A DNA stretch of 64,000 nucleotides from Ascochyta rabiei (lineage: Eukaryota > Ascomycota > Dothideomycetes > Pleosporales > Didymellaceae), in NCBI RefSeq assembly GCF_004011695.2, contig NC_082417.1, forward strand, positions 310,001 to 374,000. The letters run 5' to 3'. How positions within the stretch are numbered: the first letter of the stretch is position 1; each line of letters opens with the position of its first letter. The notes beneath the pieces were generated by a model. It had not been told where the DNA came from. It did not search any database and was given only the letters and a program-made list of their open reading frames with translations. A program made the position numbers and the translations under genes. Positions 18,792 to 64,000 of this stretch are shown here, piece by piece.

Positions 18792-19106
18792 TGTTACAGT
18801 CTACAGAACATAGAAAAGATTAGACTAGTCACATGTAGCTATAGTATAGTTATTATAGTAATAAAATAAATAAGTTATAATCTACATTATAGTACCTCTT
18901 ACAGCTTCTATAAAGAGCGTACAAAGCGTTTATAAGGGAGGATAGACTTAAAGAGAATGGTAGGTGTATTAAGGTACACAGTATATAGTAAAAAGACTTA
19001 TTACTAGTATATTAGTAATAACCTCTAACACCCTTATATAGTCTAGGCTAACTAGCTCTATAGTAGCTTGCTAAGAGTAGTAGAGGTATATATAGGCCTT
19101 ATAACA
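18792..19106 (-). repeat. LTR relic, likely 3' LTR of gypsy D
   Basis: The segment begins TGTTACAG and ends TATAACA. Its first ~80 bp resemble the start of gypsy C's LTR (TGTTAC...CTAC/TAGAACA). The part from 18,909 to 19,106 is similar along its length to 46,066-46,267, the proposed 3' LTR of gypsy G. Shared blocks include GTGTATTAAGGTAC and TATATAGTCTAGGCTAACTA. I read it as an LTR at the left end of the minus-strand gypsy D, but no target duplication was found, so the outer limit is uncertain. Confidence 0.55.
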
Positions 19107-20580
19107 ATACAGGATAATAAAAGTCTCTAAAAGATGTGGGTATCCGCTACGAGGTGTATAGGAGCACTAGGATAGTTTACACAGAGAATTGTTCTATTCC
19201 TATAGGTCTTATACAAAAGAATACTTAAAAACTAGCTCTCTATACCTATTAACCTTATGCCTTTTATACCTTATAAGAGTTAGAAAGAATTAGAGTGCTG
19301 GCCTAGGGTGTAGGGTGGACACAGATGTAACAGCACTAAGTTAGTAATAGGTTAGAGAGAAATTAGATAAGGCTTTAGGTAACTAGTATGTTATACTACC
19401 CCCCCTCTTATATAGGCAGATTATCCTAATATATAAAAAAATCTATATTATTATTCTCTAGCAGGATTATACCTATTTATTGTTATTTTAGAGTATTAGT
19501 AGCTTACTATTATATTATTTTAATTTTATGTTATTACTTTTATCTAAGGTAAAGATAACTCTTTCTTACCTATAATATTATTAACTAATTTTAAGGTATA
19601 AATAAGCTATTTCCTTAATTATTTAGTATACTATCTATTTATTATTATTATTATTATTATTTAGGTATGTTGTGTGTGTATATAAACAGATAAACTTTAC
19701 ACCTTTCCTTACTCTAATAGACACTATTTCTTACTATAAGTATACCTGCTATACTACTTTATATTCTTACTAATAATTATAGGTTAATTACTTAGTTACT
19801 AGACTAATACTAGTCCTACCTAGAGCTCTTATAGAGGTCTATAGGGTTATTTATATTTATTTAGTTTACGCGTTTATAAGAAGAAGAAAGGTTAATTATA
19901 GCGTTCTTAAGGTGTTATTATCTAAGTATACTTATTACATACTTAAAAATAAGAAGTGTTACCTAATAAGTATAATCTTTTTCTATTTTTACCTAATACT
20001 AACAGTTTCTAGGTTCTAGTTTACGCTAGTCTAGAATATATAACTTTTTTAGGTAACCTTACTATATAGAGGTAAAAGGTTAGAGAGAAAGAGGAGGATA
20101 TAGAGTTAGTAGTAGAAGTAGTAGAGTTAAGGTAGGATACCTAGTATATTATTATAGAGTTAGTAAAGGATCTAGTAAGTATAGTATAGGTAATAACTAC
20201 CTAGCTTAAAGAAGTCTTAACTACTAACGTAATGCTACACTAGTACTATATTAGCCTAACTAAAGAAGAGGTATTAGAGAGAAAGAGGATAGTAGAGTTA
20301 GTAAAATATGTAGAGGTGTTAACTAAAGAGGTAGTTAAGCTGTAACAAAAGATAGTCTGTTAAGGCACTAGAGTTAGAGAAGTATTAGTAACGCTAGCAC
20401 CTGCTCTACCTCCTAAGAAGAAGGGTAGTGCTAATAAGCTAAATATCTTAGTTAATAGTAACTCTATTATAAGTAATATTAAGAGACTATAAAAGGGTTT
20501 TCTTATTTATATAGTAAGAAGGGTTCTTTCTTTTATTCTTTTTCTTTTATCTTTTTAATATATAATATAGTTAGAGGTAT
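19107..20580 (+). pseudogene. Antisense coiled-coil accessory gene relic in the 3' region of gypsy D
   Basis: This region lies between D's LTR-like end and its minus-strand pol, but reads best on the plus strand. At about 20,090-20,493 one frame gives charged, helix-forming sequence: VREKEEDIELVVEVVELR, KEEVLERKRIVELVKYV, LTKEVVKL, then ALPPKKKGSANKLN, ending in a stop near 20,492. Breaks are TAA/TAG only. It looks like a coiled coil with a basic tail. The first kilobase cannot be read and holds ATT microsatellite sequence near 19,635. Function is unknown. Position and strand match the antisense genes of elements B, C, G and H. Confidence 0.4.
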
Positions 20581-23500
20581 TTTAGCTTTAATAAATTCTT
20601 TTTATCCTTTTATAAATTAAGATGTCTTTATACTTACTAAATCTCCTAGCCTTCTTCCTACGCTTTAATCTACTTAGCTAGTACCTTTAGAGGCCTAGGT
20701 TAATTAGGGTACTTATTATAGTATAACCTTAGCTTATATAGAGCTTCTATAAAGTTCTTTACAGGATACTAGGTTAAGTCTAGGTTATAGATAACCTAGC
20801 TTATAGCTAACCTAGCTTATATAGTACTTAAGCTTTTAGTAGATAATCTTACTAGCTAAAATTTCTTAAACTTTCTATTCTTTTCCACCTTAAACAGAGA
20901 TACCTATAGGTTTTAGAGCTTCTTATCTAAGTAAGAGGTTATTAGGATTCTTATATAAGACGTTTAGTGCAAACATATTATATATTTATAAGCCTAGTAG
21001 AAGTTTTAAATAATATAAGTAACTTACCTGCTCTAGGACTTTAAAGGGACCCTCTTACTTATTAGATAGCTTCTAGCTTAGTTGCTTTATTTTTAAGTTC
21101 TAGGTAGAAAGATATATCTTTTACTAATAGTCTAGTTTATAGGGTAATAGTAGCTATTAACTATAGAGTGTATATAGTCCTAAGTATTCTTTATATTTTC
21201 TTTAGCTACCTTCTAGGTGTTATATATGTAAGTAGCTAATACTAAGGTATTCTTATAATTAAGTTTCTTAACTAGGTTTATACCTAAATTAGCCCTATTT
21301 TAATCCTAAATCTATTTAGGCTTACTACTATAGATAGCTTAGTAAGGTAATACTCTAATTAAGGAATATAGCAGAGTAGGTTAGGCACAATTAGTAATTA
21401 GAAGAAATTTAGACTAGTTATCTTAGTAGTATAAGATAAACAGGTAAAGTTACTAGTCTATATACTTATTTATAATTTCTATTTAGCTATTAATTTCTTT
21501 ATAATAGGTTATAGATAGTTTAATCTTTATACCTATAATCTAGCAGAATTCCAACTAGAAGGTTTATATAAATTATAGTCCTTAGTTGCTTATAATAGTT
21601 TTAGAAGTGTGTCTAAATTAATATACCTATTATATAAACAAGTTTACAATTCTATATACTGTAATTATTTTATAGCACAGGATTATTATAGCTTATTTAG
21701 TTAATTGATTAATAATAACTATAATCTAGTTATAGCCTAATTTAATTTTAGGGGAGTTTTTAAAGTTAATATATAGAGTTTATATTAGCTTATTAGGTAT
21801 TAGTAAGAGATGTAAGTATTTGTAGAGCTAGGTCTATTTTAGGTAACCTTAATAATAAGGGATGTAATTCTAGACATATTGTTTACAAGTAGCATTTATC
21901 CCCTTCTAGTAGTACTGTTGTAACAGTAGCTAATAAGTCTTCTTAGCACTAGGATAAGCAGTTAATAGCTAGTTATAGGCCTTTCTAATTAGGTAGGTAT
22001 ATAAGGTAGAGTTAGCTAGTATATATAGTTAATCCTAATAGAGTAGAAGTCTGTTATAGATCTAATATAGCAATACTAGAAACAAGCGTTCTTACTTAAA
22101 GGACTTCTAATTTTCTTTAATAAGGGCTTAGATTAATTTAAGCAAATCTAGGTCTATAATAGGTTGTATTATTTAGATAGTAGATACAGCTAGTTTAGTT
22201 TTAGCCAGGTATTTCTAAGCTAAATTAAAATTAATCTGTTTGTGTAACTGCTGTAGACCTAACAGTACCTAGGATTAGTTATCCTTCTTAGTAGATTTAA
22301 GGTTTACTAAATCTTATTCTTATTAACTAAGGATATTAGTATACTTTTTATTCTTTTCTAGGGTATATTTAATATAGAAGTTAAATAGAGCAAGAGCTTC
22401 TGCCTGTTATGCTTATTAAGCGTTTAGAACTTTAGTAGTTATAGAATATTCTAAGGATTAATAGTTAGAGTAGACACAGATCTGTTTTGTAGCAGAGGTA
22501 AGTTTAGATCTCTACTTATAGAATGCTTATAAAATAGCAAATAGTTCCTTATTATATATCTCCTAGTTAACCTTAGTACTAGAGAGTACTTAGCTGTAGA
22601 AAGCAACTAGGTACTATTTATTATTTAGGTGTTGTTAGAACATAACTCCTGTAATAACTCTATTAGATATATTAGTTTTAATCTTTATATTATACTTATA
22701 TTTAAAGTAGTATAAAGTAGGTATAGATAATAGTGCCTCTTTTAAGCTTTTTAAAACTAGATTAGTACTAAGCAGTCTATTTAAATAGGTTAGCTAGGCT
22801 TTATAAGGTAATAAGGGGCTTAGCTATATATAAGAATTTAGGTAAAAATTAATCATAAAACCTAGTTAAGCCTAAGAATAACTTTACACTAGTAATAGTA
22901 GTAGAAGAGGTCTTATTCCTTAGGGCTTGTACTTTCTTAGAGTCTACTTTAATTCCCTTGTAAGTTAGGATATATCCTAGGTATTTAGTATAAGTAATAT
23001 AGAACTTGCTTTTCTTAATATCTACTTATAGTCTAGCTAATTAGAGACATTCTAATACTAGTTTAACGTGGCGCTTATATGCAGCTAGATTTTTAGAGTA
23101 GATAAGGATATTATCTAGGTACGTAATACAGAAGTTATTAAGGTATTTAATAAGAATATTATTTATATATTATTAGTACGTAGCTAGTCTATTATATAAT
23201 CTAAACAGTAGAACCTTATACTTATACCTGCTGTAATAGGTATAAAATATAGTATACTTCTCTAATACAGAGTCTATACAGATTCTGTTAAAGGTGTTCT
23301 AGATATTAAACTTAGTAAAGATCTTAGCTTTTAAGGGTTAGGCAAGTAGCTTATCTATGCGCAGTATTAGATAGAAGTCTTTTCTAGTAAGAGCGTTAAG
23401 TTTGTAATAGTTAACGTAAATACGTAGGCTTCTTTTTAGTTTATAAATATAAAGTATTAGTAATATAAAAGGGCTCTAACTTTTATTAATCTAACTATAT

Positions 23501-23616
23501 TTAAGTTAATCTTATATAAACTTCTTAGTAGCCTTAAGTTCTCTAAGATTTTGCTTATACAGGTGCAAGTAGGAATTTAGTAATTATCCTTCTAAGATAA
23601 TTTTATAGTTATAAGG
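20581..23616 (-). pseudogene. Gypsy D pol, RT to integrase part (RIP-degraded)
   Basis: The reverse strand carries a Ty3/gypsy pol with many TAA/TAG stops. It runs from 23,616 downward: YNYKIILEG leading into the reverse transcriptase, KATKKFI, LLFRLYNR, YINNILIKYLNN and TYLDNILIY (the YxDD box as YLDN, near 23,090). RNase H, integrase and a chromodomain-like end (near 20,650-20,700) should follow to the left. The frame continues across element A: the last bases here (TAAGG) join 43,111 to give ESRTLLEFYPYNYKIILEG without a break. D is therefore the host of A. Confidence 0.8.
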
Positions 23617-23784
23617 TGTTAGATTAGATGGTAATAGTAATGAGTTGATAATAATGTATTAATGTTCTGTTGTTGTTCTATATAAGGGTGATTTTCGTCT
23701 TATCTAGGTTCTAGTAGGGGCCCCTGCACAGTTTCTTAGCAGGTATATTACCTAACCTATTTCTCTAATACCTTTTATTTAACA
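23617..23784 (-). repeat. LTR of copia A (3' LTR)
   Basis: 168 bp, starting TGTTAGATTAGATGG and ending TTTAACA on the plus strand. It differs from the partner at 42,938 by transitions, for example TGTTAGATT against TATTAAATT and GATGG against GATAG. TAAGG precedes it. Confidence 0.93.
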
Positions 23785-26700
23785 CACCCCCTTAGCTTAG
23801 AATCCTATTGTAAGCTGCGTAAACTAGTTAATTAACTCTTTAACGTAAGGTCCTCTAGTTGCTCTTATATCTTCTTAAGCAGGATATCCCTTAATATACC
23901 ATTCTAGCCCTTAATAAGTCCTAACTAATTAAGAAAGCTAGCCTATTTGCTAATTAGTAATAACTTTATAAATCTATCTATAATTATATTATTAGATAGG
24001 ATGTATTCTACTTTAATTCTTTTATAATTAACTTCTTATTATAACTAGTAGTTGTGTATATGAACATGCTAAAGTTTAGTTTATATTTTAGCAATGTCTG
24101 TAGTAACTAGACATATTATCTACATATTATTATATTTAATTATTATTATTAGATTACTTAGGGTTACCTAAAGCTCTTTTAATAGTTAAGGGGTAAATAT
24201 TGCTTCCTTAGCTACTTAAGACAGTGCTAGGAGCTTAGCCTTAGTAGTTAACGTTGTAACAGTATCTTGTTTATTTGCTCTCTAGGTAATAAGTCCTCTA
24301 AATAGCTTAATAGCATATCCTTAGGAACTCTTCTAGTCTACAGTGTTATTATCAAATAATGCGTTACTTGTAACTTTAAGTCCTTAGCCCTGTCTAAAGT
24401 TAAGTAACAGATTTCTTGTCTTCTAGAGGTACAGAAGCACTTAGTTAGCAGCGTCTTAGTATTTATTACTTAGGTTAACTAGAAAGTATGTAAGTTGTAA
24501 CGTAGCAAATGCTATATTAGGTTAAGTAGTTACTGCTGTAAATAACAGGGATCTATTCTTTTACTAATATTAATTAATCTCTAGTAGTTTAGCTAGACTG
24601 TTTCTAGGCTTAAGTTTAATTCTAGATATTAGCGTGTTATGCCTTACGTCCTGTCTAGTTACTAATTAACTAATCTTATTAACGTATGCGGCTTGTAACA
24701 ATTAAATTATCTATTACTGTCTATTACGTTAGACTTCTACACTAAGGAACTATTAAAGGTTATCTCCTCTAGTGCACAGGTATTACTCCTGTATCTGTTT
24801 AATAGTATTATCTGCCTCTTGTTTGTGCTTTAGGTGGTATATAATTATAATGTTGTCTATATAGAAGAAGATAATTATTCTATCCTTAGTTATACAGCAT
24901 AGCTTTTATAGTACTTATTTAAATCTAATTCTAGCTAATATTACTGTAAATTTCTTCTGCTATAGTAGAGGGGAGATGCAGAGTCTGTACAAGGCTTTCT
25001 GTACCTTTAGTAAGGTGCCTGTCTTCTAGTATCTTCTTAGTATCCTTATGTATATTTTGCAGTTAATAGCTATATAAACAAATGTATTTATAATGTCTTA
25101 TTATTTTAGTTTAAAATTATATTTTATAGTAATTTCTATTAGTATTCTAAGTAATTAGCCTATAAGTGTTGCTGTATATATATCTTATAACGTAATATTA
25201 TATTATTAGTCTTCTCTAACTATAAGCCTTACTTTATACTTATTAAGGTAGTAGTATTTGTTAAACTTATATGTATAGACCTATATACAGTTAAGTACTT
25301 ATTATCTAGACTTCTAAACTAGAGCTGCTAGAACTTTAGTCTATAACTCTATTTGTTTGTAGCTTTATAGGTGTTTGTTTTCTGCTTGTTTAAATATCTT
25401 GTAGAGAGGGTAATCCTCTAGCTTTAAGTAGGCTGTAGGTAATAGCAGGAGTTTATTCTAATGCAGCTTAATTCCCTTTGCTATACTCCTCTTTAATTAA
25501 GCTTTATTAAAAGGTTTTCCTTTATATTAACTAAGGTGTCCTGCCTTAGTGCCTGCTATAAATACAGCTGTCTACAGCGTTATTACAGACGTTCCTTAGT
25601 CTTATTTAAGTTAGTCTGTTGTCTTATTATAGCTTATCTATTTAGTTAGGAATACTGCTAGCAGAGGAGTTAGTAGAGGCGTTGGGTATGCCTCTACAAT
25701 CTTTCTGCCTTAGTAATATTAGGGTTGTTTAGCACGCAGAGTGTTCTCCTACGTTGTCTTATTCTTATAGAATGTTTTAGTTTTAGATATATAGCTCTAT
25801 GTAGCTAGGAGTTTAACTATACTAATCTATATTATAATTTCCTCTAATATGTTATACATAAGGTTATCTATAATATCCTTTATTTTGCTGTTAAATATTG
25901 TTTCTTTATTAAACACCACATTACAGGTGCTAAATACTTTAGCTATTAATAGGACCTAGATTTAGTATATGTTAGTAGACTGGTATCCTACTAAGTATCT
26001 AATCTATACCTTTAGGTCTAGTCTTTATAGCCTTAATTTTCTTTAATAAGTGTTATTAGTTATAGTAAATGCTTTGCATCTGTATACTCTTAAGTAAGCC
26101 TAGTTTAGTTTTTAAGGTCTAGTAACTATGCTATTTATAGCAGCTGCGTGCGTAAAGAATATTTTATACAGTAATTTCTACTTATTTAGATAATTTAGCG
26201 TCTAATTGTATAGGTATACTGCTGCTCTAGTAATTTCTAGCTAGAGTTTCTATAGTAGATTTGCGTCTAGTTAAATTACGCGTACCTTCTCTTTTATTAC
26301 ACCCTCTAAGCGTTTAGCTCTTCTATTTTAAGCTTGTGTGTCTAGAGTAGAAGGCTTAAGTCTTATTAAGAAGGACGTGCACTATCTCTTAACCTCTTAT
26401 TTAACTGTAATAATTTTATTATCTATCTTAATTACCTTAACTGTAATATTAAACTGTTTCTTTAAGAACTAGATAAAGATCCTAAGTAGATAGATATTAG
26501 ATCTTGCAGGCCTGTTGTCCTTAAAGTAGAAGTTCTACACATACTAAGAGTGTTAGCAGGTAATAAGTATTTAACTCTATTCCTTATTAAAGCTTCCTAC
26601 TTTATATTTATAGAAGTCTATAGCTATTTATTTACCTAGGCCTTTGTTATTTAATTAAAGGGTTCTTTATATTTAATACTTTAATTTTAATTATCTATAT

Positions 26701-27407
26701 GTATTATATTACACTATTATAATACTTTTAATCTTTACCCCCTTAGATTAATACATAAGGTGCTTAATTGTAGATAGTCCTAGATATCTAAGCCTCTTAT
26801 GCTATATTATAGCTGTTACTCTCTAAAGTAATCTTCTATTGCAATTTATACGTATATAGAGTGCTATTATAGCTATATTTAGTTGTTTAATAACCTACTA
26901 TCTAAAGCTTTCTATTAGGATAGCTATAGTGTTACTATTTCTTTAATATAGCGTTGTTAGATCTTCTTAGTTATCCTACTATATTTCTTGTCTTTAGAGT
27001 AGCCTAAATAATACTAGGTTGCAGAGGAAATCTAGGCACTATGCGACATTGTCTAAGCGTAGTACTTATTAGCCTTAAGATCCCTCTGCTAATATATTAA
27101 CAGTACTATATCCTTATATCTAGACCTTAGAGTTTCTAGTCTAGATATAATCTTCTATTGCTAGCTAGCGTACGTCTCTAAGTCTTAAGAGGTTATTACA
27201 GATATGCGTAGTTAAGCCAGAATCTAGGAGAAATACCTCCTTTAATAGATATCTTTAATTGCTTACGCTACATGCTGCTTTTATACTACTTTTATTAACC
27301 TAAGCAATTTCTTAGCTATCTAGTTACTTAATAATCTTATCTAGTGTTTAAGACGTCTTAATGTGTAGAGTAATTAATTAAGAGTTTGTTATTGCTAGGT
27401 AGGGTTG
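23785..27407 (-). pseudogene. Copia A pol: protease, integrase, RT, RNase H
   Basis: Reverse-strand copia polyprotein with many TAA/TAG stops. Near 27,200-27,235 the protease reads LLDSGLTTHICNN with the catalytic DSG kept. Integrase should lie around 25.7-26.9 kb. The reverse transcriptase is clear near 24,780-24,900 (FFYIDNIIIIYHLKHKQEAD). The second Asp of the YVDD box is Asn, a G-to-A change that would kill activity. The N-terminal part lies on the other side of B (41,638-42,937). Confidence 0.75.
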
Positions 27408-27562
27408 TGTTAAGGACTGGCCTTAGGGTGGGATGTAATAAGGGTTAATATAGTATTGTATCTCTTAAGGAGGTAACATGTTGCGTGTCCTTCTAATATG
27501 TCTGTAGGGCACATAACTATCCTGTCTTGCTTAAGGCTTAGACAAGGTCTTAGCCTATAACA
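27408..27562 (-). repeat. LTR of gypsy B (3' LTR)
   Basis: 155 bp with TG...CA ends, preceded by target duplication GGTTG. Nearly identical to 41,478-41,632, with differences almost all transitions. Confidence 0.93.
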
Positions 27563-28199
27563 TACCTTCTTTCCCTATCTCTCCTTAGCTAAATGTATTT
27601 TGCTAGGTCCTTTCTGTGTTTTACGTAGACTAGCAGGCGCTAGTAGTAGGTAAACCCTAGAGCTAGTTATAGTTGCGTAAGGGCCTACCTCTTAGTAGGT
27701 TAGCTGTTAGTCTAGTCTGTAGTTTACCTAGGGTAGTCCCTACGCACACCTAGGTTGTTTTTGTTTTACCTAGTGCACCTTCCCTTGTTAGACGCTGTAC
27801 TACTCTCTACTCTTACCTAACCTACCTGTGTTATACCTGCCTGTCTTTTTATACCTACCTCTCTAGTTTAAATAATATATCTGTTATTGCGCCTAGCTCT
27901 AGTTACTAGGCTACTAGTTATAGGGCTAGTAGTCCTTCTAGCAGAGGTAGTTATAGCCTGCTACGTTCCCTTCTATCTACCTATAACATTCCCCTAGTAT
28001 TTTATAATAGTTATCTAGGTTTTAAATTATAGAATCTAACTATGTCTATAGAGAGCCTGCTATTACTATATTAGTAACTATAAGGTTAAGGGTAACTCTA
28101 AGGACAAGGACTTAGTCCCTGTCCCTGCCTACGCTGTCCCCTACTACCCCTGCTACCAGCTTACTATCCTTACTAGCTAGCCTAGTAAGTGTCTTATGT

Positions 28200-28870: not shown

Positions 28871-29399
28871 TTAAGAGTATAGCTAATCTGCCCTAAAGGA
28901 GGCTATAAACTAGGTTAAGCGCTTACTTACTATGCCCTACTGCTGCCTAGAGTACCTGTTATTATTCTGCCTATCCTGCTGTCTGCGCTCTGCCTCCCCT
29001 ACTAAGCACTGCCCTTCCCCCTACTAGATCTGCTTACCCTCCTACTAAGTCTGCTTACCCCTCTGCTACTGCTGCTTACCCTCTCTATTAGAGCTGCGCA
29101 CCCTACGTTATAGCACTACAGCACCTACCTCTTACTTCTTAGCCTAGTTATAACAGGCCTGCAGTATCTCTGTTAGTAATAAGGAGGAGGACAAGGAGAA
29201 GGATAACTATAAGTAGGACTACTGCTGCTGCATAGTGCGCAATTAGGCCCTAGACATAGCTACTACTGCCTGCTGTTCCTTATCTAATAAGACTATCTTT
29301 TAAGAACTAAGTTCCTGTATTAGTAGCTAGTTAAGTATAAGAAGTAGTTTTATACTGTTACTGTAGGGGTCCTAAGCTCTCCTGTGCTAGGCACTAGGC

Positions 29400-30899: not shown

Positions 30900-30904
30900 A
30901 CAGC

Positions 30905-31415: not shown

Positions 31416-31429
31416 TTTTAAACACCCCT

Positions 31430-36870: not shown

Positions 36871-36884
36871 GCAGTGCTACGTTG

Positions 36885-37410: not shown

Positions 37411-37493
37411 TTAAGACCTGCCTAATAATTAAGGAAGGGCCCTGCGTTATATGAATAAGCTTAAGAGATTAAGCTAAGACGGAAGGGGGATAG

Positions 37494-46267: not shown

Positions 46268-46309
46268 ATGCCTCCCTTCTCTAGATTGTTTAGCTTAAAT
46301 AATAGTATA

Positions 46310-52825: not shown

Positions 52826-55573
52826 GTTATAAGCCTAGCTTCCTAAGCACAGTAGATCTCCCTACGCACTCAGCAACGAGCTTGTTAGACATTGCTTAAC
52901 CGCTCTAATTTTGCCTAATTATCTTTTTTATCCTAACTCCACGACTGCTACTATAGGCGAGCTAGTTAACTACAATACTTAAGCTCTCTTAGGTATCCTA
53001 ACAGGACCCTATTAACTTAAATTAAGGTCTAATTAGCCTAATTAGTTTATTTAACTTATGTGGCACGCTAAGCTTTGTAACGTATAGGATTTAGTAGATC
53101 TAGACGCTAAAGACGCCCTAGGGATGCACGATAGAGCCCCTAGGCTACCTATCATAGGCTCTGCCCCCACCCGACCGCCGGCTTAATCGACCCGAGCCTA
53201 GAGCGTCCAACCCAACAAGCCTCCTGCAGGCCTAACAATCCTTAAGACCTACAACCAAGAGCTCCTTAGGTACAAAATAAGAGCAAGCAAGTGGGCAGCT
53301 AAGGCCGAGCGCCTTCAGAAGCTCTGGAACTGGGTCAATACCACAGTAAGCCTAGCAATCCTGTCACTAGTAATAGTAAAGCTTATTACCTAAAACACCA
53401 TAATGCTACAATTGCTTGTATGAGCCCTAAAGGAGGAGCTTGCTTTAACAGATATAAGCACTAAAAACCAGGTTAGAGCGGAGTACAGGCAGCACCTAGG
53501 AGCTGCCAGGCAAGGCTGAGCCACTCTACAGGATTAGTATTAGAAATAGTTATACCTGTATATGCGAGCCAAGTTATATAAGCTCTCTAAGGTTACTAGG
53601 GAGCTTGCCGTACAAGACTTCTTAGATACCTTAAGCTACCAGATTGCCCCAGAGTAGGCCCGCACAATAAGCCAAAGGATCATCTAGGACAGTATCCTAG
53701 GGCTTAAAACGCTTAATCTAGACTAGGTTTTAAGGGTCTTTAGTAGGTTAATGTATAAGCATACTATAAGATCAGGTAAAGATAACCTAGGCGTTTTTGC
53801 GACCTTTAGTACCCGCTCAGACGCTCTATCTAGCCAAAATAACGCGGGCGGGAGCTCTAGGAACAACGCCAGCAGCTTCTTAGGATACGTCTGCCCTTGT
53901 AAACAAAAAGGTAAGACCTACAAATAGAAGCCTACTAATTGCTGTTTCCTTAAAACTGCTGTTAGAGGGAGCTCCTTACCACCTGTTCAGATAAGCAAAA
54001 AGAACAAGCAAGAGACTTGCTAGAGGCTTAGATACCAAGAGCATAAGGAAACCTAAAAGGCAATAGAGTAGCTCAGATGGACTGCAAACGCTCTATTAGC
54101 TATTACTTCAGCCGCCACTAGCTAAACCAAGAAAGTGGAGTTTCCTGGCAACGTCTAAGCAGCTCTAATTAATCCAAAATTAATAACAAATCTAGTAGAG
54201 AACATGGGATCTAGGGTATACAACCTTATAGATTTTAACACTTATCTATTAACAGATAGTACTATTTTGGACAATAGAGCTGCTACGCACCTAGTTAACA
54301 GCGCCAATCGGCTGGTACCTGGATCTTTCTGCCCCACTGGGCCCACCGACACAGTAGAAGCAGGTACCCAGGCGCTCCCTATATCCAGACAAGGAGCTTG
54401 CTTGTTTAAGAACGCTCTGTACAGAAAGCGCGGCCTATATACTAAGAACCTGCTCCTTTAGGATATTATAGTTGTAGAAGGATTCTATATTAACATAATC
54501 TTAGAAGCTTGCCTCTAAGAGAAAGGAGTCTGGTACCTAGGTCTAGACAGCTCTCTTCGTGTGGGATACATTAAAGATCTTAATAGGAGCGTCGTATGTG
54601 CTACTCTTAAGCGCGCTTACAACCTTACTTTCCTTAAATATAAGCCACTTTCTCTCTATCCTCCTATCCTTAACGCAGTAACGACAAAGCGATCCTATGA
54701 ATCTTACCCACGCAGCTCGCCTAAACAGCTGTGGCACGCCTAAGCTGGTTATCTAGGCCTAGAGGCTCTTTAAGCGCTGGTAACAAAGGCGCGCAGCGTG
54801 CGTATCAACGGGACGCTCTAAAAAGATTGTAAGATTTGCTTAACAACCTACGCCAAGCAAGTAATATTACAGAGAAAGAGAGAGAGACCAGCATAACTGT
54901 TTTAGAGAGTTGGCTGGGACCTGTTTAATATGCTGTTAGGCAGAAGAGGCGAATTATAGACGCTTGTGATTAAGGAGTACTATAGTAGGAAGCTCTTTGT
55001 GTTTACTTTATAAGGTAAAACGTAACTAGAGATCTTACAGGTCCTTACAAACTTTACAAGCTAGGTACGTACCTAGTACAAGCTCTAAATCTGCAAAATT
55101 AGCTAAGACAATAACACAGTAACACTCCTGTAGAAAGGGAGCTCAGCATATAAGCGCTAGGCGCTTAATTAGGGAATAGATATAGATCTCTCTCCTCTAT
55201 ACACACACAAGCCGAATAGAGGAGCAGAAAGAGCTGGTTAAGAGATAATCACAAAATCTATCAAGATGAGGAGCGGAGCAAATCTACCCCAGAAGCTCTG
55301 GCTAGAGATTGTTGTAGCGGCGGCATAGCTCTATAACATAAGCCCATCGCACGCACACAAGCTACAGAGCCTAAATAAGAAGCTTAATCTCTAGTTTACT
55401 TAGTATTTCTGATAGTATAAGCCAGAGCAGGTAAGGGTAGCAACAGCAGATCTAAGACCCGATTGGAGCGGGATTTACGCCTACAGCTGCCAAGCCTACC
55501 CCTTAAACAAGGAACAAGCAGCTAGGCGTAATTAGAGGGGCTTTAAAGTCACTCTAAGGGGGCATATCGGCTA
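52826..55573 (+). pseudogene. Copia H gag, protease and integrase part
   Basis: Plus strand. Gag from about 53,080: DLVDLDAKDALGMHDRAPRL, then KTYNQELLRYKIRASKWAAK, RTISQRII, FSRLMYKHTIRSGKDN and a Cys-containing CPCKQKGKTYK (near 53,890). Protease: TILDNRAATHLVNSANRLVPG (near 54,255; DSGA-type site now DNRA). Integrase: QLWHA-AGYLGLEAL (near 54,730), DCKICLTTYAKQVI, VIKEYYSRKLFVFTL and SPLYTHKPNRGAERAG. Breaks are TAA/TAG. The frame is cut by transposon I at 55,573 and resumes at 57,354. Confidence 0.82.
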
Positions 55574-57351
55574 AGATCGGCCCCCTAGTGTTCGGCCACC
55601 CCTAGTGTTCGGCCACCTCACCCAAGTAAGCTTCACTATTTTGAGTCGTGATTTTTCAACAACAACGATTACAATTGCCACTCTGTACACATAGACTGAA
55701 GCGTAAGAGCTGCTGCTGCTGCTGCCGCCTTTTTAGCTTCGTCTTCTCCTTGCCGTGATGCCTGCTCAGCTTGTAATGCTGCTGCCCGATCTATAGCAGC
55801 CTTAATCGCCTCAACGTTGCTATAGCGCTCATTTGGATTAACTTAAACTCGCTTTCTTGAGTGAGTAATAGTAGCACTATCTAATTGATACTTGAGGCGT
55901 TGATTTTCAAATTCTAGCCGAGCTGCGCGGGTGTTGGCTCTGGCAATAGCCTTGCCTGCCTTGCCAAGCATCAGGCGTGTGCTCCGTGAATGAGATTCTG
56001 ATAGAATAAGCTGCTGAGCCTTGTACAAGGCCTGTGAGCTCTGAGGCGTGGCAAACACGTCATCTGAGGCTTAAGTAGATGGTGGAGGAGTGATAGGCCG
56101 GCCTGATACTTGAGATGAGAGCAGTACAAGGTCTGGGTTGTATGGGCAGAGGCCAGCAGCCTTCCACCCGGCTCGTATGACTCTCTCAGATAGTCCCTTA
56201 TCTCTCGCCTTATTGTATAATGTGACAAAGCGCTCCTTCTTGATAGGTGCTGCGTCATCAAGTGCTGAGAGGGCTCGGATCCCGCTACGGTAACGAGATT
56301 TGAGTACTGAGAATGGAGCCAGATCTAGCGGCTGGAGGACGTGTGACGCGTGAGGCGGGAGGTATAGGAGATAGACCTTGCTCTGCTTACAGAGCCACAT
56401 GAAGTCTATTGGGATATGAGAGCCGTAGCCATCCAGTATAAGTAACCGCCAGCGACCGGGTTAAGGTGTAGTTTGAGGCAGAAAAATCCGCTTCAGCCAC
56501 TCAGATCTAATAGCATTTGACGTCTATCCATTCTCTGACGTTGTATAGAGCCAATCAGGTACCCCTTATGCTGGGAACCACGTGGATTGTAGATGCTTGC
56601 CTTTAAAGATGACTAGGCATTGAAGCTTCTTGCCAACGGCTGAGATGGACTTAATAATAGACACCCACTCACGATCCTCTGGGGATTTGACGTAAGCCTT
56701 CTTCTTTAACGAGCTAGCAACCACACAGGAGTTGCTACATACCCCAAGGCCTACCCCAGTCTCATCCATGTTCCATATGTCCTCATATTGTATACCCAGC
56801 TTAATCCGCGTACGCTCAAACAACTCTAGAAACGCGCGTATAGTCTCATAGTTGGCTGCTGTAGTCCTTGCGCTCTTAATCTTTCGGCCAACTATAGAGG
56901 CGACGCGTGGGTTACGCGTGATGAAATGGGTTACCCATTTATGCCCGAGTGGCTCGTAGTCGCCGTTCATGTGGAGGATAAGGGTAGCCATTTCTCGTAC
57001 GCGTGGATGGGAGGGTGGCTGTACGCGTGAGTCCTCTTCAAGTATCCAATTTACTAGAAATTGCTCTTATTCTGGAGTCAATCGCTGCTGTTGATGATGA
57101 GCTATCGCGTTGGGTTGGCGACCGCTGAGGCGCTCTTGGATCGTTGATCGGGGGACGCTATAGGCCTTGGCAGCCTGCCGTTAGCTTGTAAAAACACCAG
57201 AATTGAGATCAGCGATAGCAGATTGTATAGCCACTTCACGGGGATCCATTTTGATGGCGTGGCGTTGAGAGTATAGAGCGTCAAAAACAGAGTAACGCGT
57301 TGTGTTGGGTGGCCGAACACTAGGGGTGGCCGAACACTAGGGGGCCGATCT
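55574..57351 (-). mobile_element. Pogo/Fot1-type DNA transposon I, lightly mutated
   Basis: Inverted repeats begin AGATCGGCCCCCTAGTG at 55,574 and end CACTAGGGGGCCGATCT at 57,351. Each holds two tandem copies of a CCCCTAGTGTTCGGCCA motif. TA flanks both ends (55,572-55,573 and 57,352-57,353). Length 1,778 bp. It is inserted in copia H pol. Its composition is less AT-rich than the surrounding DNA, which suggests it arrived late or met fewer RIP cycles. Confidence 0.95.
55669..57249 (-). pseudogene. Pogo-type DDE transposase of I, seven premature stops, catalytic triad kept
   Basis: One reverse-strand frame of 527 codons from ATG at 57,249 to TAA at 55,669, with no frameshift. Order: psq HTH (DPREVAIQSAIADLNSGVF, RQAAKAYSVPRSTIQERLSG), CENP-B-type HTH (EQFLVNWILEED, HPRVREMATLIL, GHKWVTHFITRNP), DDE domain with all three Asp: NMDETGVG, LLILDGYGSHIP, QPLDLAPFSVLK. 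A C-terminal coiled coil follows (KAIARANTRAARLEFENQRL). The seven internal stops are TAA or TAG, each one transition from Gln or Trp. It differs from F, whose triad is lost. Confidence 0.92.
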
Positions 57352-57353
57352 TA

Positions 57354-59840
57354 CCTCGTAGGGTACCAAGCATCTAACATCTATTGGATATAGGTCCCTA
57401 TAATTAACTAGGTTATAATAACACGCAACGTAACCTTTAATAAGGAGCTCTTTTATAATAGAGCAGATAAATCTACTGCTATAAGCGCTAAAGAAGCAGA
57501 GGCAGTAGTAGAAATCCTCTATGAACCTGGCGAGATTACAAACGCGGGAGAAGCAATCAAGCTCCCTAACAGAGACCTGACGCTTGGCAAGTCCTCTAAG
57601 CATCAGCTCGGGGGTGACACTTGGGAGCAATCTTGATTGCTAGATAGCCAGTCTAGTAACGAAGGAGCTCCTGAGACAGAGACTGTACGCGCGGCAAGCT
57701 TAGCCAGCAAGCCGCTGGAGATCCGTGCAGAACGACACCAAGAAACAGGCCTCCTATCCCCTGACCCAACGCCTAAGCCAGAGCCACTGGCCTTAGGCGG
57801 GGAAGCTCCTGAAGAGGAGAATCTAACTGACAGCTTACGGGAAGTGCACTTACCTAATTAGGAAGGGAGCGCGCCAGTAGATAATAAGGATCTTAAGGAA
57901 GAAGATCTACTAAGACCTGTATCACTGATTGTTCTAATACCTTCTTAAAGGACAATAGGAGCAGATAAGGCAGTAACGAGACGCTTGTATCAACGGAGAG
58001 TCTAGGGTCCAGCCATAAGGCGGAGCCGCCAGATAGATAACCGCGAGCGCGATGAACCTGCTAATAATTATAAGGATAGAGCAGGACAGTACTTAGTAAT
58101 AAGCTCTATAAGAAAGCACAGGTACTTCTGGCTTATCTACCTACTGTTTGAATATGCGAACAAATATGGCATAAGTAGAAGAGAGCTTGTTACTATCTAT
58201 GCGGTGCTCGCGGCGTCTGTCTTAAAGAAGGAAAAAATCCCTTCAGAGCAGCGCACGCACTGTGACGAGCTCCCACCTTTGCTAAAGAAATGGAAGGATC
58301 TCGCCTACTACCTACTAGGAGCTCTATTTTGCCAGGCTTGTAAGAAAGAGATAGCCACACTTATAGAAAAGAGAACCTAGAAAGAAATAGACTAAGCGAG
58401 CGCCTTAGCTAGGCCTCTGCCGCTTAAATAGGTCTTCACATATAAGCTAGATTAAGATAGTTACTTCCTTAAATGTAAGGCAAGGATCTGTGTACGCAGA
58501 GATCTACAGGCCAAGGATTTAATCGTCTCAACCTACGCCACAACGCTTGCCTCCAGGTCTTTTCGCACCATGGTGGCGATAGCTGCCCAGTTTGACCTGG
58601 AGCTCTATTAGTATGACGTCGCAGGCGCGTTTCTTAACGCGAGCCGCCAGGACCAACCCCAAGTGCTCTGCGAGCTGCCAGATAGCTTTACAAAACCTAA
58701 GAAGGTAGTCCTACTTCTACAGGCTCTATATAGGTTACGTGATTTGCCGGTTCTATAGTACAAAGAGCTCTTAGCTACTCTCTAGAAGCTCGGCCTAATC
58801 GCGTTAAAAGAGGAACCTTGCTTGTTCTATGACGCTGAATGCTGGATAGTGCTACTGTTCTATGTAGATGATATTCTGCTAGCCTATTATAAGGACAATT
58901 GAGCTGCTGCAAAGCATCTTATAAGCTTATTAATGGCCAAATACCAGATAGAAGACTATAGAGCTGCTGAATGGTTTCTAGGAGTGCGTATTATCCGCGA
59001 CAGAACTGCTAGAACTATTACACTCGCGCACGACGCCTATATTAACAAGCTTGCTACCAAATTTAGAGTAGTAGAGAAGAGATCCTTCCTAACAGTCCCC
59101 TTCCTGATAGAAGAGCTACTTAAGTATAACAGGCAAGCTTTAAAGCAAGAAGTTAAAGCGTTTTAAGAGCGGGTGGGATCTATCCTCTACACAGCAATTA
59201 TAATCTAACTAGATATAGCGTATGCCGCCTCTTAGCTGTCCTATCATCTTACAAATCTAGAAGCTGCTTACTTTAAGGCAGCAGCTCAGGTTATAGCTTA
59301 CCTCTATTGAACAAAGCACCTGGGGATACAGTACGGAGCTCACTAAGGCAGCCAATTGCTCATCTGTAGGGACGCGTCATTTGCCGACAATTAGGAGACT
59401 AGACGCTCCTCTTAGGGGTATATCGTGCAGCTCTTTAGTAGTCTAATTATCTAGAAAGCAGCACGTCAATCAACAGTGACGACTTTGACCACTAAAGCTG
59501 AGTTGTTAGCGTTAGAGCATGTGGCTAAGGAAGCAGCAGCTCTTAAACAGTTTCTACACGAACTTTAGCTAGACTTAGGGGTGCTGTAGGAGATTTTCTG
59601 CGACAACTAACAAACAATCTGATTAGTAGTAGAAGAGAGCGAGCGGCTTACTACTTAGCTGCGCTATGTAGATATCTAGAATATGTAGTTAAAACAAGAG
59701 TACGCCAGGGGAAATCTCCAGGTAACGTACCTCAAAACAAGCGAGATGCCAGCCAACGGTCTCACAAAAGCGCTCCCCAGACAGGCTCACGAGCGCTTTG
59801 TCTTACACCTGAACCTGTTTAGCATTAATTACATAGAAAA
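57354..59840 (+). pseudogene. Copia H reverse transcriptase and RNase H part
   Basis: Plus strand, continuing H pol: YLVGYQASNIYWI, ITRNVTFNKELFYN, then an acidic linker (near 57,640-57,860), DLIVSTYATTLASRSFRTMV, YDVAGAFLNASRQDQ, ALYRLRDLPVL-YKELL, LFYDAECWIVLLFYVDDILLAYY (YVDD intact near 58,865), MAKYQIEDYRAAEWFLGVRI and RNase H: ICRDASFADN, TTKAELLALEHVAKEAAALK, EMPANGLTKALPRQAHERFV. A dozen or more TAA/TAG/TGA stops break it. Reading is otherwise continuous. Confidence 0.85.
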
Positions 59841-60310
59841 AGAGCAGGTTAAGGGAGAGGCAGAAGATTGTGGTATTGCTGGGGAGGACAACCTCCTCCC
59901 TAAATAGGCAAAAGAGCACCTGTAACTACCGGTGGCAGCTCTTTTAAGCGCTTAACTAACAGCTACAGGGCTTAGCAAATTCTTTAAACTATGTATAGGG
60001 AGGACAGCCCCCTCCCTATAGGTATCTAGCAGCTCCAAAACCTGACCCAACCAAGGAGGGTACTCAGAAGAAGTACCTATCCTTAATCAGGCCCTTCACT
60101 ACGCAGAGAGCGCAGCGCAGATCAGTCGCCTGCTATAAGCTTGTTAGCTAATAAAAAACAACAAGTTATAATTGCTTACGGAAGTTGTTACTCTACCTAA
60201 GCAAATAAGCTTGTTAACTAGCTTAATCCTAAAGGGCTTAAGGCGGATGTCGCTAAATAAGCTGTTAGACTACTATTTATAAGCGCTATTTAAACAAAAC
60301 CTACAGAAGG
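59841..60310. other. Post-pol region of copia H with short hairpins
   Basis: No coding frame is clear. Two similar inverted repeats are present, GGGGAGGACAACCTCCTCCC near 59,880 and AGGGAGGACAGCCCCCTCCCT-like sequence near 59,998. They could fold as hairpins. Confidence 0.45.
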
Positions 60311-60720
60311 TGGCACAAATGCCCTTAGGCGCAACACCAGCAGCGCCTTCCCTGCCTACTAACACAATTAATGCACATAGGCACTAAACTGTTCACTATA
60401 AGCGCGTTAACGCAGCGCTCGCAGGGAATGATCCTGCGAGCGCCCTGTGACGGGTCGCAAGCTGGTAGGGGGGGCGCGGGCAGCGCGCGAGGTGGCGGTG
60501 GCGGCAGCGAGGCTGCATAGGCGGCGGCGGTAAGGGCGGCAGCAGCAGCAGTAGCAGCAGCAGCAGCAGAAGGAGCAGCCAAAGCTGCAGGCGCAGGCTT
60601 GGGCGCGGTTGTGGTTGTGGTTGTGGTTATGGTTGTGGTCGTGGGTGTGGGCACAGGCGCGGCAGAGCCGCTGGCGGCACGGGCAGCAGCTCAGGCGGCG
60701 GTAGCAGCGGCGGTGCGCGT
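60310..60720 (-). pseudogene. Antisense Ala/Thr/Pro-rich, Cys-ended accessory gene relic in the 3' region of copia H
   Basis: A GC-rich stretch inside AT-rich DNA. The reverse strand is open for 109 codons (60,654-60,325) and, through one TGA, further upstream. It encodes a low-complexity Thr/Ala/Pro part, PPPPPRALPAPPLPACDPS, then a Cys cluster: IPCERCVNALIVNSL, VPMCINCVSRQGRRCWCCA, and after a TAA, GHLCHLL. The spacing C-x2-C, C-x2-C, C-x-C-C suggests a metal-binding module. RRCWCCA-GHLC resembles RKCSKCVCLGQHY of element C's antisense gene. The long run of repeats may have limited coding constraint. Function unknown. Confidence 0.55.
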
Positions 60721-61461
60721 AAGGCGCTTAAATTTAGGTTCTCTCTATAGGCCAAAGTTAGCAAAACCTCTAAAAAGAGCTAGTAAAACAAGGCTAGGAA
60801 GCTTAAACAGACGCTGTCTAAAAAAGCCTTTAAGGCTATAGAAAGTGCTAAAGCTAATAAAACTACTTAAAAGAGCTGGTAAACAAAGACAGGAAGCTCG
60901 AATAGACGCTCCCCTAAGCTATTACAACTACAGAGGAAACGCAAACCTAGCAAAACAACAAAGAAGCATGTAGGGTAGGTCTAAGGAGCGCAAAACTAGC
61001 AATTGGTATACTTACGGCTATATTAATAGAGATAGTTAAAGAAACAGAGAAAAACAAGCAGGTGAGCTGGTTATATAGATCTCTAAAACGCCTAGTAAAA
61101 GTAAGAGTAAATGCGACTTTCTCTAGGCAGCACGACGTTACCAGCTTAACAGCAAATAGACGATTACTAGTCTATACTATCCCTCTTATCTAATAAGGTT
61201 TGCAAGAAACAAGTATAGGAAAGGATACTTAGCAGCTTAGTAATAAGGAATCTGCAGCTAAACAAGCGTCTGCCACCTACTTCAGCCGCTCGGCAGAACA
61301 ATTAGAGTCAGCAACGGGTTACAATTAAACCAAGACCACTAGAGAGCATTAAAACTACCAACCACAAGCTTAGAAATCTAGTTTAAGAATTTAAGAGCCT
61401 GATTACCTACGCAGCAGCTCTTAGAAGACAGGCGATCCTGGCTGGGATCACCTGGGGGGTG
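60721..61461. other. Unassigned 3' part of copia H before the right LTR
   Basis: AT-rich but with readable plus-strand patches (for example NWYTYGYINRDS near 61,000 and YLIRFARNKYRKGYLAA near 61,190). I cannot assign a family. It ends in the polypurine tract CTGGGGGG before the LTR. Confidence 0.4.
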
Positions 61462-61714
61462 TGTCGCGCAGCCGAGCCTGTAGATAACTAATAGGGTGCT
61501 CCCCTATCTAATCAAGCTTGCGGATTATTGTTGAGTGGCTCCTTTCTCCACAATTAACCACCGAGCTCCTGAGGGTCGCCCACAAAGCTTGAGTAAGCAA
61601 GATTACGTAATAACTAAATTTCCTTTATACTTAAGCAACATGTTACACATTAAATATATAGACACTAATTAAATTAATTAATTACCTAAGTATAGTCCTC
61701 TAAGCTCTGTTACA
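61462..61714 (+). repeat. LTR of copia H (3' LTR)
   Basis: 253 bp, followed by ACTAA, the same five bases that precede the left LTR. Confidence 0.94.
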
Positions 61715-64000
61715 ACTAATCTTATTAGTGCCTTATTTATATAGGCCTTAAATTAGGTAGAAGTATTTATAAGTCTAAACAGTATTACTATATACTTAAA
61801 ATGTCTATACCTAGTTTAAAAAGTAGTCTTCTACTTATCCTCTTTCTTAATTTAGATATAGTAATATGCCTTATATATATCTAGTTTAGTATAGAACTTA
61901 GCTTACGCTAGTTATTCTAGTAACTCTGTAATTAGTAGCAATAGATAGTAGTTTTTAACTGTTATCTTCTTTAGACCTCTATAGTCTACACACAGTTATA
62001 GGTTGCTGTCTTTCTACTTTAAAAAGAGAATAGGCGCCTCTGCTAGCAACCTTAAGTGTTATATCTAGCTATATTGTAGATATTCTACTAGATACTTTCT
62101 AAGTATCTCTAATTCTGTTGTAGATAGTCTGTATAACAGTTAGTAGAGGGAAGTAGCTTCTTCTATAATATTAATTGCTAGGTTATACTCTCTATGCTCT
62201 AGTAGAACCTAAGTATTATCCTCTAATTCTAAGTACGCATATTTACAATACAATTTTAGAATTAGGCTCTTTTTAGCAGATATTAGGTTATATATACCTA
62301 CTAAGTTTACTATATATATATAAACGTCTACTAAGAGACTTCTTATAGTGCGTTTAAACTCTTTAGCATCTTCTAACGCTATTTTTTCTAGTTTAGGAAA
62401 GTTTCTATACTTCTTCCCTTAGAAGAGCATACGCTAGCTTAAATAGCTTAGCCTAGGGTTTGTCTAGTTAATCTAGGGTAATCTAAGGTATATCTTATAC
62501 CTTTATAGGTCTATAACTATAAAAGGTATCTGTTAGACCTTCTGTCTTCTACAGGAGTTAACAATAGATACTTCTGCTGTAGTTACTCTGTAGATAGGTA
62601 ATTCTGCTCTACCTACACCTTTAGCTACTATTTTATTTAATAGTATAACCTCTAGATTCTGCTTCTTTGCTAGGAGAACTAAAATTCAGTTTAGTTGTAA
62701 CCCTCTATCTATTAAGGCTTCTATATTCCCTATATTACCTATAGATGCTTTAACTATAAGTAGGCATATATATTCTAGGTATACTACCTTATAAAGAGAG
62801 ATATTCTCCTTCTTCTTTTTAGACAATTTAATATAGGCTATAGAGAGGAGATTAGCTTTTAGGTCCCTTGTCTTTTCCTAACTTATCTAGAGTAGGGTCT
62901 TTCTAGTTTAACTTTAGCTTTAGGCAGTTAGGGTAGTAGTAGCTAGTTTCTCTGTACTTAAGGTATGCGTTTTAGGCCTTATACAGCCTATCTTAGCTCT
63001 TTTTACCCTTTACTAGCTCCTTACAGAACCTCTTAGACTTAAACAACTTTTTTAGGGTTTTTATATTCCCCTCTAACCTAGAGTTACTAAATTAGCGCTT
63101 CTATAGTCCTTTGTTAGTTATCTTACCCTTAGCTAGAGTCTTCTTAGGTAGCTGTTAGCTATACTAACCTAGTCTCTAGTTAATAATATTAGCTTGTTCC
63201 TCTACCTTTAGGATTGTATCCCTTTAATTATAGGGGATAAGAAACAAGTCCTTTTATATACTTAAAAGCAGTGTAGTAATATATTCTAGTACTTAGAGCT
63301 CTAGCGTATATAAGTTGCCTAGTTTCTCCTATAGTAGACGTATAAAATCTAACAGATCTATAGAAGACTAAGATTTTTACTACTTATATTACTTTAAGGA
63401 CTTATACGCTGCTTACTTGCGTTTAGCTAGTGTTTCTAGAGCATCTAGTATAACTCTTTTTAGCTCTTACTACGTTAGTTCCTAGGTTAGCTAATTATAG
63501 TAGTTAGTTGTGTAGTAGGCCTACTACAACATCTTTAGGTTCTCTAAGAGGTACCTTACACTAAAGTTAATCTTTTGTTCCTCTATAAAGAAGTTAACTA
63601 GAGATTAGAGGAAGTATCTTTTATAATCTCTCTTCTAATAGTTATGCTTTATATACTTCTATAGGGGTTTAGGTTATAAAAGAACTATAGATAGAGAAGA
63701 TTATGGTTTCTCTACCTCTTCTAGTACTTTTTAGAAGGATAGGATTATTACTAGATCTCCTTTGTTGTATTTACGTCTAAGTTTATAAAAAGAGGAAAGT
63801 TCCTTATAGTCTTTTACCTCTTATAACTATTTACGTAAGTTTTCTAACTCCTGTTATTAATTACCTACTTCTAGGCTATTCTAGCCTTCTTTAGCTAAAG
63901 CTGCTCTATAGATGCAAATTCTAAGGTAAGGTGTACTACCTAGAGGACCTACAGATCCTCTTAAGGCACTATAGACACTTAGTGTCTGTTAAGGTATCTT
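61715..64000 (-). pseudogene. Gypsy G gag and pol N-terminal part, continues beyond the window
   Basis: Reverse strand. Next to H the RT continues in frame: FRLINTST-FKAYINKALIRL joins VNITYIIYLDN at 52,572. Further right come RT N-terminal and protease regions, then a degenerate zinc knuckle (KYRETSYYYPNCLK, near 62,922-62,964; a Cys and the His now Tyr) marking gag. Many TAA/TAG stops. The 5' LTR must lie beyond 64 kb. Confidence 0.72.

What the first reader, a model, noticed from the sequence alone, without database searches (positions are those of the whole stretch)
18792..63990. Recurrent antisense accessory genes in the 3' region of several unrelated LTR retrotransposons
In gypsy B, gypsy C, gypsy G and copia H, and less clearly in J and D, a gene relic lies between pol and the 3' LTR on the strand opposite to gag-pol. 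The products share a style (Cys-rich segment, charged helix or low-complexity part) but not one sequence. Two of them have introns on the antisense strand. Convergent accessory genes in both gypsy and copia elements of one genome point to a selected function, such as host-defence interference, regulation of the sense transcript, or capture of a host regulator. Antisense ORFs are known from some plant gypsy elements; I am not aware of a described fungal system like this, but I cannot search.
Basis: partly seen in the sequence, partly recalled or inferred. Interest (0 to 1): 0.88.

Follow-up and report, generated by a model that had tools for sequence, protein, structure and literature searches.

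The report
Spliced antisense genes in fungal retrotransposons
In the chickpea-blight fungus Ascochyta rabiei, every examined copy of one copia-type jumping element holds, on the strand opposite to its own genes, the remains of a second gene that is predicted to be cut by three introns and likely made a small cysteine-rich protein, and a gypsy-type element shows a similar pattern; such antisense genes were known mainly from plants and from Botrytis.

Summary
Partly confirmed. The AT-rich part of the window is a stack of RIP-damaged LTR elements of Ascochyta rabiei. Copia H carries a well-supported antisense gene between pol and 3' LTR: four exons adding up to 196 codons, three introns with fungal splice signals kept in 17-21 of 22-24 scorable copies, a six-cysteine module (C or RIP-type Y in 143 of 144 cells), a terminal stop in 23 of 23 copies. 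It runs tail-to-tail with pol. In gypsy B an antisense exon has no stop in 8 copies (other frames 10-17%) and is followed by introns in compatible phase. G and C show antisense introns, but their exons are weakly supported; D shows nothing; J could not be placed. Part of G is a separate pogo-like transposon (46308-48175). The intervals themselves are contiguous in 17-39 copies per family, so they are not late insertions. Function is inferred: likely a zinc-binding accessory regulator made from its own antisense transcript; no RNA data were available and codon-position constraint is only suggestive. The kind is known (plant aORF-3R; Boty brtn in Botrytis); a multi-intron form in a fungal copia element appeared in none of my searches.

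The parts
52573..61714 (+). copia element H (LTRs 52573-52825 and 61462-61714; RVT_2 58408-59085; pol stop about 59905)
   Evidence: LTR repeats; RVT_2 E 2.1e-18; TSD ACTAA; stop shared by scorable copies
61016..61021 (-). H antisense exon 1 (start codon plus one codon; ATG in 6 of 24 copies, ATA in 18)
60745..61015 (-). H antisense intron 1, 271 nt, all three signals in 21 of 22 scorable copies
60305..60744 (-). H antisense exon 2: basic start, Ala/Thr/Pro linker, six-Cys module C-x2-C-x12-C-x10-C-x2-C-x5-C
   Evidence: Cys columns; stop density 0.014, lowest of six frames; the GC-rich linker is also open on the sense strand (106 codons)
60253..60304 (-). H antisense intron 2, 52 nt, all signals in 17 of 24 copies
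60180..60252 (-). H antisense exon 3
   Evidence: stop density 0.006 against 0.030-0.205 in other frames; 4 of 4 transversions at third positions
60133..60179 (-). H antisense intron 3, 47 nt, all signals in 18 of 23 scorable copies
60064..60132 (-). H antisense exon 4 with terminal stop (TGA 12, TAA 11 of 23 scorable copies)
18903..46256 (-). gypsy element B, interrupted by nested elements; 3' LTR 18903-19099, 5' LTR 46060-46256
19783..19965 (+). B antisense exon I, C/Y-rich, no stop in 8 copies
   Evidence: family-wide 19 of 30 copies without stop, 11 with one
19966..20012 (+). B antisense intron 1, 47 nt (donor lost in the window copy), all signals in 5 of 8 copies
20013..20174 (+). B antisense exon II, charged stretch
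   Evidence: stop density 0.072, only third lowest of six frames
20175..20243 (+). B antisense intron 2, 69 nt (window copy only)
20244..20492 (+). B antisense exon III, tentative
   Evidence: window copy only; second lowest of six frames
27754..28015 (+). C: stop-poor antisense stretch, tentative exon
   Evidence: stop density 0.016, lowest of six; transversion phase p=0.17
28185..28252 (+). C: antisense intron, all signals in 23 of 30 copies
48942..49171 (+). G antisense exon I, tentative
   Evidence: lowest of six frames
49172..49221 (+). G antisense intron 1 (3 of 3 copies)
49222..49423 (+). G antisense exon II, tentative, charged
   Evidence: lowest of six frames
49424..49474 (+). G antisense intron 2 (2 of 2 copies)
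49475..49651 (+). G antisense exon III, tentative; not the lowest-stop frame
46308..48175 (+). separate pogo-like DNA transposon inserted in gypsy G; not an accessory gene
   Evidence: 67-bp terminal inverted repeats; DDE_1 E 6.7e-20; G copies that match up to its borders lack it

Best explanation
The pol-to-3'LTR interval of copia H, and with less certainty that of gypsy B, holds a predicted intron-containing gene on the strand opposite to gag-pol that is shared by the family's copies and would have encoded a cysteine-rich accessory protein. Shown: interval shared by copies, antisense frames poor in stops, splice signals in compatible phase, six conserved cysteines in H, tail-to-tail arrangement with pol. 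Inferred: the gene is transcribed from its own promoter in or near the 3' LTR, because its introns can be spliced only from antisense RNA; the same orientation lets the introns survive passage through the sense genomic RNA. The protein likely binds zinc and nucleic acid in the nucleus and regulates the element's own expression or replication, as proposed for plant antisense ORFs. RIP then damaged the copies. G and C probably carry genes of the same kind.
For: H: exon lengths 6+440+73+69 = 588 nt; three introns with donor, branch and acceptor in 21/22, 17/24 and 18/23 scorable copies; six Cys columns C 122, Y 21, S 1 of 144 cells, and Cys to Tyr is a change RIP makes; terminal stop in 23 of 23 scorable copies; model frames have the lowest stop density of six in exons 2 and 3 and tie for lowest in exon 4. 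Two copies 73-78% identical in DNA keep the exon-2 frame and the start-exon donor, and intron signals where they can be aligned. B: exon I 0 stops in 479 codon cells of 8 copies, other frames 9.7-16.7%; 19 of 30 family places with at least 54 codons aligned have none. Intervals shared (only the best 40 candidates were scored in each call): H 21 near full-length of 45 matched places, C 25 of 47, B 17 of 49 covering at least 1,685 of 1,851 bases, G 39 of 40 covering at least 1,882 of 1,924. Strict intron pattern: 5 in 7.8 kb of antisense intervals, 1 on the sense strand of the same intervals; 9 of 300 shuffles reach 5.
Against: No RNA data. Each of the 22 H copies has 1-5 in-frame stops in the model, one of them shared by the scorable H copies, and some have frame-shifting indels that the stop counts ignore. 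Transversions by codon position inside H exons are not decisive (counts by position mod 3: exon 2 Cys part 4, 4, 2; exon 4 1, 1, 0), and their rate in exons 2-4 (0.057, 0.055, 0.029) is not clearly below that of introns 2 and 3 and the downstream stretch (0.096, 0.043, 0.061). Part of the H linker is open on the sense strand too. No Pfam match above cut-off, no PDB or protein-database match. The intron pattern was written after H and B introns had been seen. B's Cys pattern has Tyr in all 8 copies at three of six positions; B exon II is not the lowest-stop frame. Copies are related, so stop counts are not independent, and the B frame was chosen because it was open. In C and G sense-strand runs are as long as antisense ones.
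Confidence: 0.68

Rival explanations
1. The antisense genes are separate transposons that inserted into the LTR elements in reverse orientation.
For: True for two places: a pogo-like element with DDE_1 and 67-bp inverted repeats in the 3' end of G and one at 55572-57353 in the 5' part of H.
Against: The intervals themselves are contiguous in 17 to 39 copies of each family, and no inverted repeats of their own were found at the thresholds used.
Confidence: 0.05
2. The stretch is non-coding antisense or 3' untranslated sequence; the open frames are chance in C/Y-rich, RIP-altered DNA.
For: C and G: longest stop-free runs are as long on the sense strand; for C the stop test has no power even for pol; transversion rates in H exons are not clearly lower than outside; D is empty.
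Against: For H: phase-compatible four-exon model, conserved Cys, conserved introns and stop. For B: frame-specific scarcity of stops.
Confidence: 0.2
3. The antisense transcript, not a protein, is what counts: it pairs with the sense genomic RNA and feeds silencing or limits copy number.
For: Discussed for plant elements in PMC7264820 (passages seen); convergent arrangement with pol.
Against: Does not explain six conserved Cys, stop-poor frames and introns in compatible phase.
Confidence: 0.12
4. Captured host gene carried as a passenger without function for the element.
For: Introns are typical of host genes; orientation would preserve them.
Against: A search of the genome with one 86-residue piece of H found no donor gene: 24 matches at E<=10, 22 H-family copies and 2 H relatives. 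The gene is kept in relatives about 25% diverged in DNA.
Confidence: 0.2

Closest known systems
Boty brtn (antisense gene of a Botrytis cinerea gypsy element; Zhao et al. 2011, cited in PMC7264820, PMC8365987, PMC4227169; original paper not seen)
   Same: Fungal LTR element with an additional gene antisense to gag-pol between pol and 3' LTR
   Different: Boty is gypsy; here the best case is copia with three introns and a six-Cys module. No sequence comparison was possible: the BRTN sequence was not at hand
Plant aORF-3R: maize Grande gene23, rice RIRE2, Silene Retand, bean PvRetro13 (PMC7264820, PMC11963269)
   Same: Position, antisense orientation, presence in most copies, an own antisense promoter reported for Grande, suspected nuclear regulatory role
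   Different: Plant hosts; Retand elements carry TRP28 (PF04195), no such match here; the words 'intron' and 'zinc' did not occur in PMC11963269, nor 'intron' and 'zinc finger' in PMC7264820
ORF3 of bdelloid rotifer LTR elements (PMC5408684)
   Same: Accessory genes shared between unrelated retroelement types, expressed from spliced messages
   Different: In the passages seen they are not described as antisense, and the types are enzymes, env-like or membrane proteins (GDSL, DEDDy, TM)

Membership tests
[quoted passage not shown]
   H gene 61021-60064 between pol stop about 59905 and LTR 61462; B likewise
aORF-3R (antisense additional ORF between pol and 3' LTR) | antisense to gag-pol | tested here: met
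aORF-3R (antisense additional ORF between pol and 3' LTR) | present in all or most copies | tested here: met
   H 21 near full-length intervals of 45 matched places, the rest shorter pieces; B 17 of 49
aORF-3R (antisense additional ORF between pol and 3' LTR) | open protein-coding frame | tested here: inconclusive
   H open but for 1-3 stops in 20 of the 22 H copies and 4-5 in L029 and L030; B exon I fully open in 19 of 30
aORF-3R (antisense additional ORF between pol and 3' LTR) | antisense transcription | not testable with these tools
   no RNA data held
Boty brtn family | sequence similarity to BRTN | not testable with these tools
   no BRTN sequence at hand; database searches with H peptides gave no hit
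Retand TRP28 family | PF04195 domain | tested here: not met
   Pfam scans of the intervals, no such hit
pogo-like DNA transposon | DDE transposase and terminal inverted repeats | tested here: not met
   met at 46308-48175 and 55572-57353, not in the H, B, C intervals or 48177-50100 of G

The most novel reading that the evidence does not exclude
Copia H and gypsy B (and perhaps C and G) carry one exchangeable antisense gene module, a six-cysteine exon followed within three codons by a short intron, that spread between unrelated LTR families of a fungus; antisense orientation is kept because only there can an intron-containing accessory gene survive the RNA stage.
Probability: 0.28. Interest if true: 0.75.

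Novelty: new variant of a known kind. Interest (0 to 1): 0.55.

Why it matters
It extends antisense accessory genes to a fungal copia family and to multi-intron genes, gives exact splice junctions that RNA-seq can test, and offers a simple reason (intron survival) for the antisense orientation. It also warns that RIP and nested pogo elements can hide or mimic such genes.

Tried and rejected
Fixed-stop test with a 90% threshold had no power, pol failed too; with an all-copies threshold it works for H pol (3 of 383 codons against 13-23 in the other five frames) but not for C pol. Frame-by-frame protein comparison of C with its relative gave similar identity in many frames. Six-Cys pattern in C: an unspliced match at 28968 lies in a low-complexity stretch, and a spliced reading around 28126-28296 needs positions that are Tyr in all 30 copies, so no claim for C; the strict column scan finds nothing in B. 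C/Y patterns without a stop occur 4 times in 45 kb on both strands. Protein searches with H gave 1 and 81 word-sharing candidates and no hit, although the database holds fungal proteins. One search used a wrong frame of L071 and serves only as an off-frame control (7-13 stops per about 105 codons in its first 18 rows; it also spans the intron). Literature: ten searches; no description of a spliced antisense gene in a fungal copia element appeared in their listings; most subscription papers are not held. Row counts include duplicate rows (window copy twice, three loci twice); one search recounts 24 distinct H-type copies.
Full report
Setting. The window is contig C13:310001-374000 of a 40.9-Mb genome in 23 contigs. 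The Elp2 gene at 16227-18491 is 100% identical to a protein named from Ascochyta rabiei whose longest contig has 1,536,791 bases, the length of C13. So the host is the chickpea-blight fungus. From about 18.8 kb on, GC is 26-51% per kb and the DNA is a stack of LTR elements damaged by RIP (repeat-induced point mutation: C to T in CpA). For H the RIP signs are mixed: TA/AT is high (1.8-2.7) in all 21 rows, but the CpA index is near 1 (0.86-1.18) in 19 of them and low (0.30-0.33) in L029 and L030.

Anatomy. LTR pairs and Pfam scans with X at each stop give: gypsy B (minus strand, 18903-46256), inside it copia E (23619-43105), inside it gypsy C (27410-41632), inside it gypsy D (plus, 30905-38003); then gypsy G (minus, from 46.3 kb to beyond the window end), cut by copia H (plus, 52573-61714). 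B, C and H have about 1.5-1.9 kb between the last pol domain or pol stop and the 3' LTR; D has only about 0.64 kb. In G the border of the 3' LTR was not found; 48177-50095 holds 1.9 kb including some LTR.

Not separate insertions, with one exception. The intervals are contiguous in many copies (only the best 40 candidates were scored per call): H 21 near full-length matches among 45 matched places, C 25 of 47, B 17 of 49 covering at least 1,685 of 1,851 bases, G 39 of 40 covering at least 1,882 of 1,924. The exception is 46308-48175: a pogo-like transposon with 67-bp inverted repeats, a DDE_1 transposase on the plus strand and TA at both borders; G copies listed match up to its borders and lack it. 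It could pass for an antisense accessory gene of G, but is not one.

Copia H. Comparison of H with two relatives 73-78% identical in DNA showed conserved antisense peptides that change frame at GT...AG boundaries. The model: exon 1 61021-61016, intron 271 nt, exon 2 60744-60305, intron 52 nt, exon 3 60252-60180, intron 47 nt, exon 4 60132-60064 with the stop. The exon lengths add up to 588 nt, 196 codons. All three signals (donor, CTRAY-like branch, AG) are kept in 21 of 22, 17 of 24 and 18 of 23 scorable copies. The start codon is ATG in 6 of 24 copies and ATA in 18. Six columns spaced C-x2-C-x12-C-x10-C-x2-C-x5-C hold C 122, Y 21, S 1 in 144 cells; Y is what RIP makes of Cys. The terminal codon is a stop in 23 of 23 scorable copies. 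In-frame stops inside the model number 1-3 per copy in 20 of the 22 H copies and 4-5 in the two most damaged; the four relative rows of that call, which are two distinct copies, have 4 each over the shorter part aligned. One stop is shared by the scorable H copies. Frame-shifting indels in the linker of some copies are not in these counts. Stop density in the model frame is the lowest of six for exons 2 and 3 (0.014, 0.006) and tied lowest for exon 4 (0.007); part of the GC-rich linker is also open on the sense strand (106 codons). The pol-frame stop at about 59905 makes the two genes convergent.

RIP-immune test. RIP makes transitions only, so I counted transversions by codon position. For H pol the third position dominates (for example 9, 1, 0 in 59150-59449, p = 0.0007), so the test works. 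In the antisense gene it is suggestive only: 60050-60349 gives 10, 2, 2 (p = 0.01) with the excess at third positions of the exon-3 frame; exon by exon the counts are small (exon 3: 4 of 4 at third positions; by position mod 3, exon 2 Cys part 4, 4, 2 and exon 4 1, 1, 0), and the rate in exons 2-4 (0.057, 0.055, 0.029) is not clearly below introns 2 and 3 and the downstream stretch (0.096, 0.043, 0.061). So constraint on the protein is likely but not proven. In B exon I the most diverged copy differs by 10 transversions, 6 at third, 4 at second, none at first positions.

Gypsy B. In 8 copies the antisense frame 19783-19965 has no stop in 479 codon cells, the other five frames 9.7-16.7%. Family-wide 19 of 30 places with at least 54 codons aligned have none and 11 have one; the same family searched in a wrong frame has 7-13 stops per about 105 codons in the first 18 rows (which also spans the intron). 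The frame was picked because it is open, and copies are related, so these counts are not independent events. The frame ends at a 47-nt intron, all signals in 5 of 8 copies (the window copy has lost its donor), followed by a charged stretch, a second intron of 69 nt and a further open stretch, all in phase; exon II is only third lowest in stops and exon III was seen in one copy. The C/Y spacing near the end of exon I (19858-19959) resembles the H module, x2, x10, x8, x2, x6, and as in H an intron follows within three codons; but Cys is seen in some copy at only three of the six positions.

Gypsy G and C. G: introns 49172-49221 (3 of 3 copies) and 49424-49474 (2 of 2) in compatible phase with low-stop exons I and II; exon III is not the lowest frame. 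C: a stop-poor antisense stretch 27754-28015 (density 0.016, lowest of six) and an intron 28185-28252 with all signals in 23 of 30 copies. In both, sense-strand open runs are as long, and for C even pol cannot be told from noise, so these stay tentative.

Introns as further evidence. A strict fungal intron pattern (42-90 nt) occurs 5 times in 7.8 kb of antisense intervals, once on their sense strand, and 4 and 7 times on the two strands of the whole 45 kb; 9 of 300 dinucleotide shuffles reach 5 (mean 1.59). The pattern was written after the two short H introns and one B intron had been seen, so this is supporting evidence only.

Function. No Pfam match above cut-off outside pol and pogo domains, no PDB relative (best line E 0.6), no database protein, and no host donor gene with one 86-residue query (24 matches, 22 H-family copies and 2 H relatives). 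From anatomy I infer: separate antisense transcript, because the introns have the antisense polarity; introns survive because the replicating RNA is sense; six cysteines suggest zinc binding (recalled chemistry, not tested); role as accessory regulator, by analogy with plant antisense ORFs. Host-defence interference remains possible and untested.

Literature. [quoted passage not shown] PMC8365987 (passages) uses brtn for BcGypsy1. PMC4227169 and PMC5987419 (passages) mention brtn. PMC11963269 (abstract and passages) shows TRP28 antisense ORFs in Retand. PMC5408684 (abstract and passages) covers rotifers. PMC7341154 (passages) describes the A. rabiei ArME14 assembly, 40,927,385 bp, 21% AT-rich, 15% repeats; the terms Gypsy and Copia do not occur in its main text. 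The original brtn paper was not seen.

Verdict. A real, degraded antisense gene with predicted introns in copia H, a good second case in gypsy B, tentative ones in G and C, none in D. New variant of a known kind.

Noticed in passing
55572-57353: Pogo-like DNA transposon (DDE_1, HTH_Tnp_Tc5, HTH_psq on the minus strand, 54-bp inverted repeats, TA at both ends) inserted in the 5' part of copia H; it accounts for 1.8 of H's 9.1 kb.
   Followed up: partly
46308-48175: Pogo-like transposon with 67-bp inverted repeats in the 3' end of gypsy G; one search lists dozens of copies at about 94% identity.
   Followed up: partly
4819-5126: Short tandem array in the gene-rich part (steps of 9, 16 and 25 nt); one frame reads Cys-Met-Glu repeats, another Ser-Val-Trp.
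   Followed up: no
23619-43105: Copia E has only about 5.2 kb of own sequence and so little room for an accessory gene; a natural contrast to copia H.
   Followed up: no
L029, L030: Two H copies on contig C3 are far more RIP-damaged (GC 0.34, 84-85% identity) than the other H copies.
   Followed up: no
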